This document shows, piece after piece, positions 24,880 through 31,640 of a DNA stretch of 64,000 nucleotides (the stretch's first letter is position 1; the number at the start of each line of letters is the position of its first letter). The stretch is taken from assembly GCF_020164455.1 (NCBI RefSeq), contig NZ_JAIQWW010000014.1:1-64000 (forward strand), read 5' to 3'. Below the pieces are notes generated by a model. The model ran no database searches. It was not told where the DNA came from and saw only the letters and a list, made by a program, of their open reading frames with translations. The translations under genes and the position numbers were made by a program. This DNA is from Phyllobacterium chamaecytisi. Lineage in GTDB: Bacteria; Pseudomonadota; Alphaproteobacteria; Rhizobiales; Rhizobiaceae.

Positions 24880-25968
24880 ATGGCGAGTCTGCAGCACTTC
24901 GATTCCGAGATCGAGAAGACCAGAACAATGGTCAATGACATGCGGACGAAAATCGATCAGTCCACAATAGTCCTCGACAAATTTGCCAAAGCCGATGAAA
25001 AGATCGGCGCTTCCGATTTCGATATCGAAAATGCGCGTATTGACGATGTCCTGCGCCAGCAAAAGGTAATGGAAGGCAATATCGCCGAGCTGATCATCGG
25101 GCTAGAGGATGCCACCAATGTTTTCGGTTCTGAATTCGAAAGCATGAAAGGCTATTCCGGCTGGGAAAAGTTTATCGGCATCTTCTCCAAGCAGAAGATG
25201 CAGCGCCTGCGTTCAGACCGCGTGCGTAACATGTCACTTGCGGGAAATCTCCAGGAACTCCTTTCGAAGTCCGACCGGATTGTCGGTATTCTGAAAGAGC
25301 AGAAAGGTGTTCTGGACGAGCGCTACAAGACCTCCGAAACGAGCCTTGCGACTGTCATAGAGCGGCGCAAGTCCACCATCGCCAACCTTGAAGCGACGCA
25401 AAAGCGCATCGAAGAACTCAACCCGCTCTTGCTGGAAATTGAAAACAAGATTGCCGCATCGACCGATCAGGGCGCACGCACCGAGCTTGAAGGTCAGCGG
25501 TCGAAACTTGCGACAGAATATAATGAGCGGCAGGCCAAGGAACAGGAGCTTCTTGCGGAAAGCCAGACGCTGGAACGCTACACGTCCATGTTCCAGACTT
25601 TCGTCGATTCACTCAATAACCAGATCGCGGCACAGAGCACGCTGATCAACAAACTGTCGATCGATACCGAGCAGCGCATTGTTCTTTACAAGGCGCTGGA
25701 AGATTCTTTGAAAACGGCCGCGCAACAGGACGTGGCACACAAGATCAATACGCTCGGCAGCAAGGTGGATACGGCAGCTGAAGAGACCATGGCCGGTGTC
25801 GGCGCTGCGGCCCAGAAGCACATTGGCGATCTTCTCGAAATGCACGAAAGGAACATGGTCAGTTCGCAGGATATCCAGCGCCGCAAGAAGCTGGCTGACG
25901 ATGCTTTCTCCCGGCGGTTCTCAGAGGTCCTGAAGAAGCACAATTCCGCCGATTACGTGCAGAGCTAG
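24880..25968 (+). CDS. Uncharacterised coiled-coil protein, first gene of five-gene block
   Basis: I do not recognise a family. The 362 residues are almost wholly helical and charged with no membrane segment or signal peptide. Two coiled-coil zones flank a Gly/Trp-containing turn (G-Y-S-G-W-E-K-F-I-G-I-F-S). A second half rich in E-L-N-P-L-L-L-E-I-E-N-K and L-I-N-K-L-S-I-D-T-E-Q-R follows. It loosely recalls cytoplasmic scaffold proteins of membrane-stress systems, but this is only a look-alike. ATG 24880 has CAGGGGA nine bases upstream. The next gene begins three bases after its stop, so it heads an operon with the AAA+ ATPase. Confidence 0.82.
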   Translation: MASLQHFDSEIEKTRTMVNDMRTKIDQSTIVLDKFAKADEKIGASDFDIENARIDDVLRQQKVMEGNIAELIIGLEDATNVFGSEFESMKGYSGWEKFIGIFSKQKMQRLRSDRVRNMSLAGNLQELLSKSDRIVGILKEQKGVLDERYKTSETSLATVIERRKSTIANLEATQKRIEELNPLLLEIENKIAASTDQGARTELEGQRSKLATEYNERQAKEQELLAESQTLERYTSMFQTFVDSLNNQIAAQSTLINKLSIDTEQRIVLYKALEDSLKTAAQQDVAHKINTLGSKVDTAAEETMAGVGAAAQKHIGDLLEMHERNMVSSQDIQRRKKLADDAFSRRFSEVLKKHNSADYVQS

Positions 25969-25971
25969 TCA

Positions 25972-27120
25972 ATGACTGATAATGCAGATCTTGCAGCGGC
26001 CGAGCGCTATTTTGGGGCTATCCGCGCCGCGCTCGATGGGCTCGAAGTCTTTCTGAACAACCAGGACTCGCCACTCTACAAGCATGACCTGGTTGCACAG
26101 ACGGTGTCTGAATATCTGCAACGCCTTGATTCTTCGTTCGAATGCTGGCGCAACAGGCTCGGTTTTGCCGAGCGCTTTCGTATATCCAAGGCCGAGAGCG
26201 GCTTTCCTGTCTTCCAGAATGTTCTGGAACTTGAAAATGACAAGAAGGACGCATCGGTCCGGCTTGCTGCCATTCCGCCGGCGGATGCGCTTCGGGGCGA
26301 GATGGCGGATTTCATTTTGCGCAATCGCGAGTTTCCGCGCGACCTGCAAAGGTCCATGGCGGAACGGGTATATCTGGAAGTCGTAGAAAAAGGCGAGATA
26401 TTCTCTCCCTTCCTGTTGCCGACGACTATCCGCGTCTCTGTTAACCCGAAGACCATGCGCCCCTTTTACGTGGTGCATTGGGGCGCATTCGACGGAGCCT
26501 CGAACCTGCCATTGATCTACATGGCGATCATCGAGGATTCATCCGAAGATATGGTGGAGACGCTGGTGGCCGAGGGCAAGCTCAACAGCAAAGTCAGGAT
26601 TCCTCTGCCGGTCGGCGGTCTTCTCAATCCGGATCTCGCACGCCGCTTCGACGATTTCGCCGCGAAGAACTCGGCCTATTCGCTGTCACCGATAACCATC
26701 GCCACGGCACTCGATCAGGATTTTCCGGAACTGCATCCCAAGCAGCTACGCCGGCTTGTTCTCGGGCCATTCTACACGGCCGGGATTACCGAGCATAATC
26801 AGAAAGTTGCCGACGTTCTTGAGCGGGTACGCAAGCCAGAGGACGCCTGGCTCCTGACCTGGACCTTGCAGGAGGTTTTTTCCAAGGCGGAAAAACCCGG
26901 CAAACGTGGACTTTGGTCGTCGGAGCCGTCGCGTGAGGAGTTTCACATCAATACGGATGACCTCGAAGCGGCAAGGCAGGGCGTCAGTCACTATGAGCAG
27001 CACGCTCTGGTGCCGCATGAAGCCTATCAGGCGTTGTACGCATCAGGGGAAGCGGCAGGTATCTTCAAGGGGTTTCAGACGCATATCCTGTCCAATGGCC
27101 AGGTGATCAGCGGCATTTGA
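25972..27120 (+). CDS. Uncharacterised protein, second gene of five-gene block
   Basis: A 382-residue soluble protein with no family I can name. The first about 120 residues look helical (A-A-E-R-Y-F-G-A-I-R-A-A-L-D-G-L). The middle has alternating strand-like segments (P-F-Y-V-V-H-W-G-A-F-D-G and L-P-L-I-Y-M-A-I-I-E-D) suggesting a mixed alpha/beta domain. The end carries a helical part with P-H-E-A-Y-Q-A-L-Y-A. No catalytic motif is evident. It sits between the coiled-coil gene (3-base gap) and the ATPase gene (13-base gap with a GGAGGAAA ribosome site) and is surely co-expressed with them. Confidence 0.82.
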   Translation: MTDNADLAAAERYFGAIRAALDGLEVFLNNQDSPLYKHDLVAQTVSEYLQRLDSSFECWRNRLGFAERFRISKAESGFPVFQNVLELENDKKDASVRLAAIPPADALRGEMADFILRNREFPRDLQRSMAERVYLEVVEKGEIFSPFLLPTTIRVSVNPKTMRPFYVVHWGAFDGASNLPLIYMAIIEDSSEDMVETLVAEGKLNSKVRIPLPVGGLLNPDLARRFDDFAAKNSAYSLSPITIATALDQDFPELHPKQLRRLVLGPFYTAGITEHNQKVADVLERVRKPEDAWLLTWTLQEVFSKAEKPGKRGLWSSEPSREEFHINTDDLEAARQGVSHYEQHALVPHEAYQALYASGEAAGIFKGFQTHILSNGQVISGI

Positions 27121-27133
27121 GGAGGAAAAAACC

Positions 27134-29041
27134 ATGGATGTCGGTCTGACCACGCTTGAGGAGAAGGACATCGCCAAGCATCTTGCCGTCGCACAGGCAA
27201 TGGTGACGCGATTTGTCTCGCTCGACAGCGGCGAAAAGACCGGTACCGAAATTGCGGGTACCGGCAGACGTTTTGTTTCTACCGTTTCAACCGGCGGATT
27301 GCGCAAGACGCGTGAGGTGGAGCTTGCAAAAACGATCCAGTCTGTGCGTGCCGACGATCAGATGCTTTCGATTGCCCAACACACGCTGCTGTTTCGCGCG
27401 CGGCGCGGGGTTGCAATCGCGTTGGCCGTTGCCGATGTTTTCGGCCGGCAAAGTGATCTTGAAAGCCTGATGGCGCGCAATGCTTCCGCGCCGTTACAGG
27501 GTGACGAGGCCAGTCATTTCAAGCGGCTTCTGTCAGCCGCAGCTTACGTTGGCGCTTTCGCCTTTGCCGCCTATCTCGCGCAATTAATCGAAGCTGATTC
27601 AGAGCCAGCCAATGATATGAGTGAGCCGGATTTCATCTTCGATACGGCGCAAGACGCGTTGAAATCGGTGATTGCCGGTCTCGATCGCGCAATTTCCGGC
27701 GCGAGCGACGAGCAGGTAATGCTGGCGCGCGCCAAAGCCTTTTCGGCGCTTGCCATCGAAGGGCTTTTGCAGCGCAAGGGACGATTTGACGGGCTTGGCA
27801 GTTTCGAGGACACGCACCTGCGGCTCGACAGCGATGACTTCACGCTGGACGGGTTCGATGTTGCGCCATCGAAGAAACGCACGCCGCTGGTGATGACATT
27901 CAAGAAACCGAATGAAGTCGTCGGCAACCACATCGCCAAGTTTCAGGCCCTGAAGCTTTCCAAAATGCTGATGGCCTATGATTTTGACCGGCAGCTCAAT
28001 CCGTTTGTCGAATTGGGCGGGTTTCTCTTCACTTTCATTGGCGATGGCGCGCCAGGCACAGGCAAGACCACGCTGATCCAGATGATCGCCGGGCTGCTCA
28101 ATGATTATTGCCAGGTCGCGGGTTACGCCTTTCACTATGAGAATTTCGGTGTGGATCAGATATCGTCCTATCAAGGCAAATCCGGACAGAACTGCAAGCA
28201 ATTCGTGACGAATGTGCTTAATCCGCGCGTGATTGGCTTCGGTACAATCGACGACATCGATCAGGTTGCGGCCAAGCGTTCGGATGACCGCGCCTCCTCC
28301 GGCCAGCACGAGATCACCGGCGTGCTGATGGAAGCTTTTTCCGGCGCATCCACCGTTGTTCGCGGTAATTGCTCATTCGGCATGTTCTCCAACTATCCGG
28401 AGAATGTCGACGATGCGTTGAGGCAGCGGGCAGGGGCGCGCTGGCTGGTTGATGGGCCGCAGACTCGCGAGGACTACATCGATATCTTTGCATTGCTGGC
28501 GGGCAAAAACCACAAGATACCGCTGGGCGATCACAAGCTCTACGAAGCGCAACAGATCGAACGGGCGGTGGAGACGGCCTATGACGAATTGTCGGAGCCG
28601 CAGGAGGAGGGGCTGAAAGTGGTCTTTGATCGCTTCATCAAGGACAATGGCGAGCCACAAACCCTATCCGACATCGGCACCTATCTGCACATGATCAAGG
28701 AACGCGAGCCACGCTTCACCGGCCGCGCTATCAAGAACGTCACTGACGCAATCAAGATGCGGGCGATGGATGTGGAACTGCCGGATGAATGGTTCGAAAA
28801 GCCCGAAACGTTCATGCACAAGGCCTATGATGAAAAGAAGGCGATGATCGAGAAATTGCGCAAACCCTTCACGATGGAGATGGTGCTACAGGAAACCAAC
28901 CGATATGCGGATTCGGAATTCCGCTATGCTGACAAGTCTGATGACGCTGCAGTGGACAAAATGGTGCGGGACGCGAGGTTGCGCGAGCGAGCGGTCAGAG
29001 AAGTCGAAGCGCTCAAGGCCAAGGGGCAGTGGGACCTCTGA
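27134..29041 (+). CDS. AAA+ ATPase, third gene of five-gene block
   Basis: A 635-residue protein. The N-terminal about 290 residues are mostly helical and unrecognised. An AAA+ module follows: Walker A G-A-P-G-T-G-K-T-T with K311, and Walker B F-G-T-I-D-D-I-D-Q with D373/D374. A sensor-like stretch reads F-G-M-F-S-N-Y-P-E-N, and an Arg-finger-like segment reads A-L-R-Q-R-A-G-A-R-W. The C-terminal 150 residues are helical and charged. It should form a ring ATPase that remodels a protein partner, very likely one encoded by its neighbours. It is neither MoxR nor Lon nor Clp by its motifs. Its stop overlaps the next start by one base. Confidence 0.88.
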   Translation: MDVGLTTLEEKDIAKHLAVAQAMVTRFVSLDSGEKTGTEIAGTGRRFVSTVSTGGLRKTREVELAKTIQSVRADDQMLSIAQHTLLFRARRGVAIALAVADVFGRQSDLESLMARNASAPLQGDEASHFKRLLSAAAYVGAFAFAAYLAQLIEADSEPANDMSEPDFIFDTAQDALKSVIAGLDRAISGASDEQVMLARAKAFSALAIEGLLQRKGRFDGLGSFEDTHLRLDSDDFTLDGFDVAPSKKRTPLVMTFKKPNEVVGNHIAKFQALKLSKMLMAYDFDRQLNPFVELGGFLFTFIGDGAPGTGKTTLIQMIAGLLNDYCQVAGYAFHYENFGVDQISSYQGKSGQNCKQFVTNVLNPRVIGFGTIDDIDQVAAKRSDDRASSGQHEITGVLMEAFSGASTVVRGNCSFGMFSNYPENVDDALRQRAGARWLVDGPQTREDYIDIFALLAGKNHKIPLGDHKLYEAQQIERAVETAYDELSEPQEEGLKVVFDRFIKDNGEPQTLSDIGTYLHMIKEREPRFTGRAIKNVTDAIKMRAMDVELPDEWFEKPETFMHKAYDEKKAMIEKLRKPFTMEMVLQETNRYADSEFRYADKSDDAAVDKMVRDARLRERAVREVEALKAKGQWDL

Positions 29042-30324
29042 TGGACCTTCTCTACGAAAACGAGCTGATCTATGGACGCTTGCTGACGATCGACCAGCCG
29101 CATCTGATAGAGCGCTACAATCGCGCGCTGAAATCCTTCGGTTTCCCTGCGACGAAACTCAAGAAATTCAACGTCGACAGGACCGGCTTTTCTCCGGAAA
29201 TCGCCAAGGAGCTGAAGGATCCGTCTTATCTCGATCCAAATGGCGTCAACCGGCGGTTTATCATTTTGACACCGGCGCAGGCGGATTTGCCGGTCGTGCA
29301 CACGCAATTTTCCAACACATCGCAACTGATGTACGAGTTTTTCACCAGCAATTCCCGCGCCATCAATGCACTGACGATTAAGGATGTACTCTACGGCGAG
29401 ATCGAGGATAGCGTTTCGGTCGTCAATGACATCGAGGACCTCCTGTCGATCAACCAGGTTGAGTTCCGGGTGCTCTCGGCGGAAAACGTCATGGGGCAGG
29501 CGGCGGAATTGCGGCTACTGGTCGACAGGCTGGAAGACGAGCCAGACGCCTGGCGCAACAACGAGCTCATCAACCGCATGGTGGAACTCGCCAAGGTCAC
29601 CGGTGATATCCGGGAGAATTCGCTGGTGCCGGATAAGGTGATATTCCGGCATCGCGCCTTCTGGACCAGCCATTTCGGTGGTGTTTTCATCTTTGTAGAT
29701 GACAATACGACGACCGTCATTGGCGATCCGTCGGCACCGGGATTCCGGCGATCGCGGCCGTGGCAGGTGAATTATATTTCCATCAAGGATGCCGAGCAGG
29801 TCTTTCAGTTTCTCGCTTCGACCGCTCGCATCGAACTGCCGCGCGCCTCATGGATCGAGCAGTCCGGCTATCTGGAAAATCGCGGCGAGATGATCATCCG
29901 CCATCTGATCCAGTCACTGGAGCCGGAAAGGGACCTCACCAACATAGATCGGATTTGGCTGCAGACGTGGATTCACGCCAATGCCAGCTTGATCAATCAT
30001 GACGGCACCTGGCCGTTCCTTAATGCGGTCAAACGCGAAATCGGCCAGACCGGGCAGCTCAACATGGCGGAAATAGATCCGAAACGCCGGTTTCTTGTCA
30101 TACGCGCCCTGCCAAGACATCCGGACGCCTGGCTGGTCAACCATCTGATCGGCGATTTCGTGCCGTGGGATTTCCTGTCGCGTTATGTCTTCAACAAACC
30201 GGGGTTCTTTGCAGACTATGAGGGCTGGAGCCCTCCCTATCAGGCACATGTCGTCGAGACTCTGAAGACGATTTATTTGAAGGATAAGGAGGGGCTAAGG
30301 AAGAGGCTGTATGGGTTGTCTTAA
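29041..30324 (+). CDS. Uncharacterised protein (possibly DUF6638), fourth gene of five-gene block
   Basis: A 427-residue soluble protein whose ATG overlaps the ATPase stop (TGATG). I recall rhizobial proteins of this size and context as DUF6638, but I am not certain. Visible features are L-I-Y-G-R-L-L near the start, a central strand-rich part (H-F-G-G-V-F-I-F-V-D-D-N-T-T-T-V), tryptophan-rich motifs (R-P-W-Q-V-N-Y and L-Q-T-W-I-H-A-N-A), and a conserved tail K-R-L-Y-G-L-S. A degraded second copy of its last about 55 codons follows directly (30325-30500). No membrane segment is seen. Function is unknown; tight coupling suggests a complex with the ATPase. Confidence 0.82.
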   Translation: MDLLYENELIYGRLLTIDQPHLIERYNRALKSFGFPATKLKKFNVDRTGFSPEIAKELKDPSYLDPNGVNRRFIILTPAQADLPVVHTQFSNTSQLMYEFFTSNSRAINALTIKDVLYGEIEDSVSVVNDIEDLLSINQVEFRVLSAENVMGQAAELRLLVDRLEDEPDAWRNNELINRMVELAKVTGDIRENSLVPDKVIFRHRAFWTSHFGGVFIFVDDNTTTVIGDPSAPGFRRSRPWQVNYISIKDAEQVFQFLASTARIELPRASWIEQSGYLENRGEMIIRHLIQSLEPERDLTNIDRIWLQTWIHANASLINHDGTWPFLNAVKREIGQTGQLNMAEIDPKRRFLVIRALPRHPDAWLVNHLIGDFVPWDFLSRYVFNKPGFFADYEGWSPPYQAHVVETLKTIYLKDKEGLRKRLYGLS

Positions 30325-30500
30325 AGCCGTGGGAACGCGATTTTGTCCTCTGCTGACAGCAAACGCAGGAACCTTCGGGCCGTTTGTACCGGTTGGCGCT
30401 CTATCTCGAAGGAACACGTTGTCGATATTCTCAAAACAACCTATGTGAATGACAGGCAAGGGCTGCGAAGGCGGCTTTATGGACTTGAACAACAACGAGG
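30325..30500 (+). pseudogene. Decayed duplicate of the C-terminus of the preceding gene
   Basis: The spacer before the DUF2333 gene resembles the last about 165 bases of the preceding gene. It starts with the same GCCGTGGGA and ends with H-V-V-D-I-L-K-T-T-Y and G-L-R-R-R-L-Y-G-L, against H-V-V-E-T-L-K-T-I-Y and G-L-R-K-R-L-Y-G-L in the gene. The copy has an in-frame stop and at least one frameshift, so it is not translated as a unit. It reads as an old tandem duplication or a leftover of a second family member. Confidence 0.75.
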
Positions 30501-30506
30501 GATAGG

Positions 30507-31640
30507 ATGCTCGAGCCCGTGATCAATTTCTTCAGCCGTATCTTCTACTACATCGGACGCGGTATCGGCTTCGTCATCGGCATCATTCTCTTGCCGTTCA
30601 TTTGGGCCGGCCGTTGGTATGGCCAGCGCGGAATTATCCTCAAGGCGGTTCTCGGTCTTGCAGTGCTCGTATGGCTCGGTCTCTACGGCTATTTCTTCTA
30701 CAACACGCAGGTCTGGAAGAATTTCAACCCCGATTACATCGCGTCCTATAATTTCAAAAACCTGACTGTTCCGGTAGGGGAACCGGTTCCTTCGCCGACG
30801 CAAGCTGCCGATACAGGCGCGGCGAAGACCTGCGCGCGCTCAGCTATCGTGCAGGTGACCGCAGACCTTACGGATTTCAACGTCAACCAGAACGCGTGGA
30901 TTTCCTCCATGCTGCTCTACAAGCTCGGGTTCTTCGGCGTCGATTGGGACAATACGCCTTTCCTCGATAACAAGGCGTCCTTCCAGCGCGGCATCAATTC
31001 GGCAGTGCGCCGCACAGCAGTTGAACTCGTCGATACACTTGGCCGTGTACGAGGGACCTCGCAGATCGACGCCGACTTGCAGAAGGCGCGCGGAAACCTG
31101 CAATTTACCGAAGACGCCTGGTATTTTGGTCTCAATCCCTTTGGTCCGAAGACGCCGACGCCGAGTTATTATCGTTCGGCGGTCAAGGATTTGCGTACGT
31201 TCAATACCAAGCTTGAGTCCTGCAATGCCATTTTTGATGCGCGTGCGGACAATCTTATCCAGTTCATCGACCGTATCGCCAACGACATCGGCGCGACTTC
31301 GGCGATTTTGAAAGATCGTTCGGAAAACAACAATTATGGCTGGTTCGACACGCGTGCCGATGACCGTTTCTGGTTCGCCTACGGCCAGCTTTATGCCTAT
31401 TACGGCCTGATGAATGCAGCTCAGTTGGATTTCAAACAGGTGCTCGATGAAAAGCACCTGACGCCGCTTTGGGATGGTATGGACGGGCAACTTCGTTCGG
31501 CCTTGAACATCAAGCCTTGGATCATCGCCAATGGCAGCGAAGGCGGCTGGCTGTTGCCGAACCACCTGACGACGATGGGTTTTTATATCCTGCGCGTGCG
31601 CTCAAACCTGATCGACATCAAGCAGGTGCTGCAGCAGTAA
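30507..31640 (+). CDS. DUF2333 membrane protein, fifth gene of five-gene block
   Basis: A 377-residue protein with a hydrophobic N-terminus: a segment at about 15-35 (I-G-R-G-I-G-F-V-I-G-I-I-L-L-P-F) and a second at about 45-67 (A-V-L-G-L-A-V-L-V-W-L-G-L-Y-G-Y-F-F). A large domain then matches the DUF2333 family known mainly from gammaproteobacteria (F-Q-R-G-I-N-S-A-V-R-R-T-A-V-E-L, D-T-L-G-R-V-R-G-T-S, F-D-A-R-A-D-N-L). No enzyme motif is known in the family. The domain probably faces the periplasm. The ribosome site GAGGGATAGG ends next to the ATG. It likely gives the module its membrane anchor. Confidence 0.86.
   Translation: MLEPVINFFSRIFYYIGRGIGFVIGIILLPFIWAGRWYGQRGIILKAVLGLAVLVWLGLYGYFFYNTQVWKNFNPDYIASYNFKNLTVPVGEPVPSPTQAADTGAAKTCARSAIVQVTADLTDFNVNQNAWISSMLLYKLGFFGVDWDNTPFLDNKASFQRGINSAVRRTAVELVDTLGRVRGTSQIDADLQKARGNLQFTEDAWYFGLNPFGPKTPTPSYYRSAVKDLRTFNTKLESCNAIFDARADNLIQFIDRIANDIGATSAILKDRSENNNYGWFDTRADDRFWFAYGQLYAYYGLMNAAQLDFKQVLDEKHLTPLWDGMDGQLRSALNIKPWIIANGSEGGWLLPNHLTTMGFYILRVRSNLIDIKQVLQQ

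What the first reader, a model, noticed from the sequence alone, without database searches (positions are those of the whole stretch)
24880..31640. Five-gene module built around a AAA+ ATPase, apparently uncharacterised
Five genes run in one direction: a coiled-coil protein, an unrecognised protein, a AAA+ ATPase, a second unrecognised protein and a DUF2333 membrane protein. Gaps are 3 bases, 13 bases and a one-base overlap, then a 182-base spacer. The ATPase has intact Walker A (K311) and Walker B (D373/D374) motifs but a long unknown N-terminal part. Stoichiometric coupling of an ATPase with a coiled coil and a membrane anchor suggests one machine, perhaps for membrane or protein remodelling under stress. 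I know of no described function for this set; the role is inference.
Basis: partly seen in the sequence, partly recalled or inferred. Interest (0 to 1): 0.78.

Follow-up and report, generated by a model that had tools for sequence, protein, structure and literature searches.

The report
Conserved four-gene ATPase machine, function unknown
Four neighbouring genes, built around a ring-type ATPase, are inherited and transferred as one set in many bacteria and in one giant virus of bacteria, usually beside genes for membrane proteins, which points to a cellular machine for which I found no published study.

Summary
In detail: five + strand genes at 24880-31640 of a Phyllobacterium-like genome, with the gaps and ATPase motifs stated. 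The set is real but built differently from the reading. A (coiled coil), B, C (AAA ATPase) and D are a core: C and D occur in the same 26 of 398 genomes of the phylum, and A-B-C-D order holds in 96 of 99 loci, the other three ending at contig ends (one locus apparently counted twice). The core moved as a unit into a genome of another class. D is Pfam DUF6638. E (DUF2333) is an exchangeable partner: family-f32-type loci carry DUF1523 instead, and E often occurs alone. A 359-kb jumbo-phage contig carries E-A-B-C-D. Where B, C and D are missing, A survives beside E with its C-terminal half eroded, which suggests which part works with the ATPase. The 182-base spacer holds a decayed copy of D's 3' end. 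C has an aromatic pore loop and an invariant Asp-Asp Walker B. Best inference: an ATP-driven machine at the inner membrane acting on A. Its role is not shown, nor is membership of Ter/TelA, ESCRT-III/Vps4 or MoxR-VWA systems.

The parts
24880..25968 (+). gene A, 362-aa all-helical coiled-coil protein, core
   Evidence: no Pfam or NCBIfam match above a cut-off; predicted as long helices, low confidence
25705..25758 (+). A residues 276-293, SLKTAxQQxVAHxINxxG stretch inside the family's most invariant region (241-300)
   Evidence: S276 T279 A280 Q282 Q283 A286 H287 I289 G293 invariant in 23 of 23; region partly deleted in orphan A
25972..27120 (+). gene B, 382-aa protein of no known family, core
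   Evidence: no Pfam match above cut-off, no NCBIfam or PHROG match
27134..29041 (+). gene C, 635-aa classical-type AAA ATPase with a long undescribed N-terminal part, core
   Evidence: PF00004 E 2.3e-11, residues 305-435
28046..28069 (+). C residues 305-312, Walker A GxPGTGKT
   Evidence: invariant in 23 of 23 except residue 306
28169..28177 (+). C residues 346-348, YQG, aligned with YVG of an i-AAA protease (pore loop 1; the role is recalled)
   Evidence: invariant; alignment to 5ubv
28250..28255 (+). C residues 373-374, Walker B Asp-Asp; Asp at the place of the usual catalytic Glu
   Evidence: invariant in 23 of 23; aligned with IDELD of 5ubv
29041..30324 (+). gene D, 427-aa DUF6638 protein (PF20343), core
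   Evidence: E 2.1e-69; same 26 of 398 genomes as C
30391..30486 (+). relic: decayed copy of 32 residues from the end of D, inside the 182-base D-E spacer
   Evidence: similar copies in L026, L027 and L081
30507..31640 (+). gene E, 377-aa DUF2333 (PF10095) membrane protein, exchangeable partner
   Evidence: E 1.2e-23; hydrophobic stretches at residues 11-38 and 41-65

Best explanation
A-B-C-D is the core of one ATP-driven protein machine of the cytoplasmic face. C forms an AAA ring (inferred from its clade) whose conserved aromatic pore loop pulls on a protein substrate. The most likely substrate or scaffold is A, a coiled-coil protein, engaged through its C-terminal half, which holds the family's most invariant block (residues 241-300), with B and D as dedicated adaptors or structural subunits. 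The machine works at the inner membrane through an exchangeable membrane partner: E (DUF2333) in rhizobia and on the phage contig, a small two-TM protein plus DUF1523 in f32-type genomes. Its likely action is to assemble, remodel or clear a sub-membrane scaffold made of A. Shown: the families, co-inheritance, order, transfer as a unit, motifs, and the A-E pair where B, C and D are gone. Inferred: the physical complex, A as substrate, membrane docking and the biological role.
For: C and D in the same 26 of 398 genomes, A in those 26 plus four. A-B-C-D in order in 77 of 80 named and 19 of 19 sampled loci. G088, of another class, nests with one f32 genome in the A, C and D trees alike (100/99, 98/95, 100/98). 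Purifying selection on all five genes. Walker A, YQG pore loop, N420, R432 and R436 invariant. Membrane-type partners next to D: DUF2333 or DUF1523. The phage contig keeps E-A-B-C-D together. Orphan A beside E keeps 11 of 14 invariant residues in 61-180 but 11 of 34 in 181-362 (L190), and evolves faster (dN/dS 0.19 and 0.31 in two comparisons, against 0.09-0.10 for E).
Against: No experiment and no interaction data. E was not found near the core in Vibrio or on R. leguminosarum pRlX5, where I identified no substitute. The loss in orphan A is spread over 181-362 (3 of 7, 7 of 20 and 1 of 7 invariant residues kept in its three segments, L190), so it does not single out one docking site, and the orphan genomes are related. 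A's fold was predicted at mean pLDDT 61.9 only. D's model matches no solved structure, so no activity can be read from it. Asp instead of Glu in Walker B could mean slow hydrolysis. Invariance in A could reflect self-assembly rather than ATPase docking.
Confidence: 0.47

Rival explanations
1. Phage exclusion or stress-barrier system: the module reorganises a sub-membrane layer so that phage DNA or toxic compounds do not enter, as proposed for Ter/TelA systems, and jumbo phages carry it against competitors.
For: The whole set lies on a jumbo-phage contig. The C-D slot often holds toxin- or defence-type genes (DUF559, PIN, ParE, AbiJ_NTD4) and the B-C slot Fic, which matches PADLOC candidates. 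Iyer et al. 2021 (PMC7824862, passages) describe TelA in group 2.2 jumbo phages and propose superinfection control. If, as the handles suggest, the 120 genomes are G000 and G039-G157, TelA is over its cut-off in 8 of 9 core genomes and 11 of 111 others. The phage B matches BrxA weakly (E 1.5e-4).
Against: Window proteins B, D and E match no PADLOC model at E 0.1; A and C only weak AriA, TRIP13, IetA, MkoC and PDC-S53 matches. Present in 20 of 20 genomes of the genus, unlike patchy defence genes. Slot genes may be selfish passengers, and none sits in the window's C-D junction. The TelA pattern is confounded by kinship, 79 rows were not listed, and the window's own genome has no TelA.
Confidence: 0.22
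2. Dedicated assembly chaperone: C with adaptors A, B and D matures or inserts a particular inner-membrane complex, in the way MoxR-VWA pairs do, and the membrane partner is part of the client.
For: Fixed gene order with a membrane-type protein next to it; different possible clients (DUF2333, DUF1523) in different clades.
Against: No VWA model for any partner and no MoxR model for C at E 1. DUF2333 exists without the core in 87 of 98 genomes, so it does not need the core there.
Confidence: 0.2
3. E is an unrelated housekeeping gene that merely lies downstream in rhizobia; the machine is soluble and not membrane-linked.
For: DUF2333 in 98 of 398 genomes, 87 without the core; no E near the Vibrio set.
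Against: E is adjacent to A on the phage contig and kept beside orphan A in 4 of 4 genomes, and other membrane-type proteins stand in its place in f32-type loci.
Confidence: 0.2

Closest known systems
Classical-clade AAA ATPases (FtsH/i-AAA, PAN/Rpt, Cdc48/VCP)
   Same: Walker A, pore-loop aromatic-x-Gly, asparagine and arginines of the second region of homology; the profile hits are i-AAA, VCP-like and Rpt
   Different: Asp-Asp Walker B, no protease or substrate-binding domain recognised, own N- and C-terminal parts, dedicated neighbours
ESCRT-III with Vps4 (and PspA/Vipp1)
   Same: helical coiled-coil protein encoded with a AAA ATPase, membrane link (analogy only, recalled)
   Different: no MIT domain match in C and no ESCRT-III or PspA match of A at E 1; helical-bundle matches are not specific
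Ter/TelA stress systems
   Same: helical protein of similar length; both found in jumbo phages; often the same genomes
   Different: A does not match PF05816; profile comparison prob 9.6%, E 0.0033
MoxR-VWA chaperone pairs
   Same: AAA ATPase with co-encoded partners (recalled)
   Different: no VWA partner, no MoxR model match
DUF2333, DUF6638 and DUF1523 families of Pfam
   Same: E, D and the f32-type partner match them
   Different: no function found in the papers searched (those seen as a listing only)

Membership tests
AAA (PF00004), classical clade | profile match above curated cut-off | tested here: met
   44.7 bits against 21.2
AAA (PF00004), classical clade | Walker A, Asn and Arg residues of the second region of homology | tested here: met
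   K311, N420, R432 and R436 invariant in 23 of 23; residue roles recalled
AAA (PF00004), classical clade | catalytic Glu in Walker B | tested here: not met
   Asp374 in 23 of 23
DUF6638 (PF20343) | D matches above cut-off | tested here: met
   235 bits against 27
DUF2333 (PF10095) | E matches above cut-off | tested here: met
   84.1 bits against 22
TelA (PF05816) | A matches the TelA profile | tested here: not met
   not among the matches of A at E 1; no match in the window's own genome at E 10
TelA (PF05816) | distant relation by profile comparison | tested here: inconclusive
   prob 9.6%, E 0.0033 with 23 and 11 rows; weaker with 7 and 11 rows
Ter system | co-encoded TerB, TerC, TerD | not tested
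   not searched in the window's genome
ESCRT-III/Vps4 | MIT domain in the ATPase | tested here: not met
   no MIT match at E 1 in C
ESCRT-III/Vps4 | ESCRT-III fold of A | tested here: inconclusive
   model pLDDT 61.9; matches are generic helical bundles
MoxR-VWA | VWA-domain partner and MoxR-type ATPase | tested here: not met
   no VWA or MoxR model at E 1
known anti-phage systems (PADLOC 2.0.0) | core proteins match models of one system | tested here: not met
   C: weak TRIP13, IetA, MkoC, PDC-S53; A: weak AriA; B, D, E none at E 0.1. The phage B: BrxA at E 1.5e-4, 19.4 bits
one ATPase complex | physical association of A, B, C and D | not testable with these tools
   needs pull-down or complex structure

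The most novel reading that the evidence does not exclude
A-B-C-D is a new class of prokaryotic membrane-remodelling machine: a polymer-forming coiled-coil protein recycled by its own AAA ATPase with two new adaptor families, plugged into different membrane partners, and captured by a jumbo phage to reshape or seal the host's inner membrane during infection.
Probability: 0.17. Interest if true: 0.9.

Novelty: new variant of a known kind. Interest (0 to 1): 0.7.

Why it matters
It puts four families, three of them without any known function, into one defined and testable unit, present in 20 of 20 genomes of the window's genus, in many rhizobia, in another family of the class and on one jumbo-phage contig. 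If it remodels the inner membrane it would add a bacterial ATPase-scaffold machine to a field that knows few. The natural variants (orphan A with E, exchanged membrane partner, phage copy) give ready-made comparisons, and the erosion of the C-terminal half of orphan A names a region to mutate.

Tried and rejected

Literature: DUF6638 (0 papers), DUF2333 (1 paper, two passages read: only a neighbour of an orphan hcp gene), DUF1523 (4 papers, listing only), accession terms (2 papers, listing only), recalled S. meliloti locus tags (1 paper; one passage, a ChvI-study fragment inside SMc02733; that this tag belongs to the module is recalled, not checked), and four wider searches (listings only, except the passages of PMC7824862). 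One search of ten was left unused.

Limits: outside Pseudomonadota only the 14 control genomes were looked at, for D, E and TelA (D 0 of 14). B was not searched genome-wide.
Full report
What is there. The genome is Phyllobacterium-like: the best named ATPases are from Phyllobacterium trifolii (97%) and other Phyllobacterium species. Upstream lie a glycine-betaine/choline-type ABC transporter and thymidine kinase, downstream an Lrp-type regulator and a proline-dehydrogenase-type gene (tdk and Lrp named, the others by my reading). D belongs to DUF6638 and E to DUF2333; A and B match no Pfam or NCBIfam model above its cut-off.

How firmly the genes belong together. In 398 genomes drawn from the phylum, C (E at or below 1e-20) occurs in 26 and DUF6638 in 26, and the 26 handles are the same. 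A (E at or below 1e-10) occurs in those 26 and in four more. Of 80 named loci 77 show A-B-C-D-E in order, and the other three end at contig ends; 19 of 19 sampled loci show A-B-C-D, four of them with E. In 39 relatives, the own genome included, C is in 23: 20 of 20 of the genus, 1 of 3 others of the family, 2 of 16 others of the order.

Transfer as a block. Trees of A, C and D (20 rows each) agree on a rhizobial and an f32 clade. G088, of the phylum but not the class, sits with the same f32 genome in all three; G300, of the window's own order, sits with f32_g68 in A and C and is unresolved in D. The rows of the phage, Vibrio, G035 and, in A, R. leguminosarum have long branches and I lay no weight on their places. 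Vibrio parahaemolyticus and V. vulnificus records carry A-B-C-D with about 39% identity in C, and R. leguminosarum plasmid pRlX5 carries A-B-C-D without E in the stretch read.

The membrane partner changes. Of the 26 core genomes, 11 have DUF2333, all of the window's family; 15 do not. In f32-type loci D is followed by an 88-aa protein with two hydrophobic stretches and a 216-aa DUF1523 protein (Pfam E 6.5e-68 for the one tested, L163). Each DUF1523 ORF that I saw had relatives in 13 other loci of the 18 mapped. DUF2333 itself is broader: 98 of 398 genomes, 87 without the core. In 16 such stretches its neighbours look like housekeeping genes (read by eye). So E is a partner, not part of the core.

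A jumbo phage carries the set. One IMG/VR contig of 359,044 bases (L189, L194, L195) holds E-A-B-C-D on one strand. E there matches DUF2333 at 7.7e-91. On one side lie a virion structural protein (phrog_13138, E 3.2e-33) and an HNH gene, on the other a DNA polymerase exonuclease subunit and a ClpA-like ATPase. The structural protein and the ClpA-like ATPase have relatives in jumbo phages such as Sinorhizobium phage Phosso (469 kb); the latter also in Agrobacterium phage Atu_ph07 (490 kb). No other contig with C was found in three scans; one search missed this contig, so such scans are not exhaustive. Two scans with A found it and one 51-kb contig with an 81% A near its end. The annotated phage collection has no match to A or D, only generic AAA matches to C, and two records with E-like proteins at 44% and 27%. 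A misassembly of the contig is not formally excluded.

A natural experiment. In four genomes of the window's family (G081, G145, G291, G303) the same spot reads tdk, diverged A, E. C and D are not found in these genomes, and B is not in the stretch read. Of 49 residues invariant in 11 A proteins, orphan A of L190 keeps 11 of 14 in 61-180, but 3 of 7 in 181-240, 7 of 20 in 241-300 and 1 of 7 in 301-362; about 22 residues of 241-300 are deleted. L193 keeps 8 of 14 in 61-180 and 5 of 20 in 241-300. Two comparisons among three of these genomes give dN/dS 0.19 and 0.31 for A and 0.09-0.10 for E, against 0.014-0.055 for A with the full set. My reading is that the C-terminal half serves the B-C-D side and the rest serves something else, perhaps E. 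The genomes are related, so this is not four independent cases, and the loss is not confined to one motif.

The ATPase. C is of the classical clade: its profile relatives in solved structures are i-AAA protease, VCP-like and Rpt domains. The pore-loop position reads YQG, and N420, R432 and R436 stand in the second region of homology, all invariant in 23 of 23. Walker B has Asp at the place of the catalytic Glu in 23 of 23. The pore loop favours pulling on a protein; the Asp may make turnover slow. Both are inferences from known AAA proteins (recalled).

Insertions inside the operon. Between C and D the gap is 400 bases or more in 41 of 79 named loci, against 10 of 78 for B-C, 2 of 78 for A-B and 1 of 79 for D-E. 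The 41 hold DUF559-type genes (28), PIN with a PhdYefM-type gene (6), ParE-type (3) or none of my representatives (4); B-C holds Fic in 7 of 10. Of eight such C-D gaps in the sample, three hold a DUF4145-like gene (below that family's cut-off), two DUF559, one each AbiJ_NTD4, DUF3825 and a hydrophobic protein. S. meliloti Ak57 has an annotated endonuclease-domain gene and ISRm16 there. This is either an insertion hot spot that the operon tolerates or a slot for associated effectors; I cannot tell which. It is not used in the window, where C and D overlap by one base.

Verdict. A solid four-gene core with an exchangeable membrane partner, undescribed as far as my searches go. The best mechanism is an AAA ring acting on a coiled-coil scaffold at the inner membrane, at about even odds; the physiological role is open. 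Iyer et al. 2021 (PMC7824862; passages) describe TelA and Ter genes in jumbo phages as possible means against superinfecting phages, which makes the exclusion rival testable here. No paper on DUF6638 was found in the held library, and the one on DUF2333 is incidental.

Noticed in passing
L189 8903-16387 (IMGVR_UViG_3300035698_035310): Full E-A-B-C-D set on a 359-kb jumbo-phage contig that also encodes SmpB, DnaJ, a peptide deformylase and a FliG middle-domain protein.
   Followed up: partly
named loci L026-L105, C-D gap: Insertion hot spot inside the operon: 41 of 79 gaps of 400 bases or more, mostly DUF559 genes and toxin-antitoxin-type pairs.
   Followed up: partly
window 30325-30506: Decayed partial copy of D's 3' end between D and E, similar copies in L026, L027 and L081.
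   Followed up: yes
L190-L193: Diverged A kept beside E with B, C and D gone, in four genomes.
   Followed up: partly
genomes: TelA over its cut-off in eight core-bearing genomes of the listed rows, not in the window's own; 79 rows unlisted, may be kinship.
   Followed up: no
L037 12044-13741, - strand: Opposite-strand 566-aa ORF in the C-D gap matches DrmC-type models (E 8e-16), so probably a phospholipase-D-like protein; not examined further.
   Followed up: no
L208 5474-7905: A stand-alone DUF2333 gene lies near a gene whose start looks like PspA; read by eye only.
   Followed up: no
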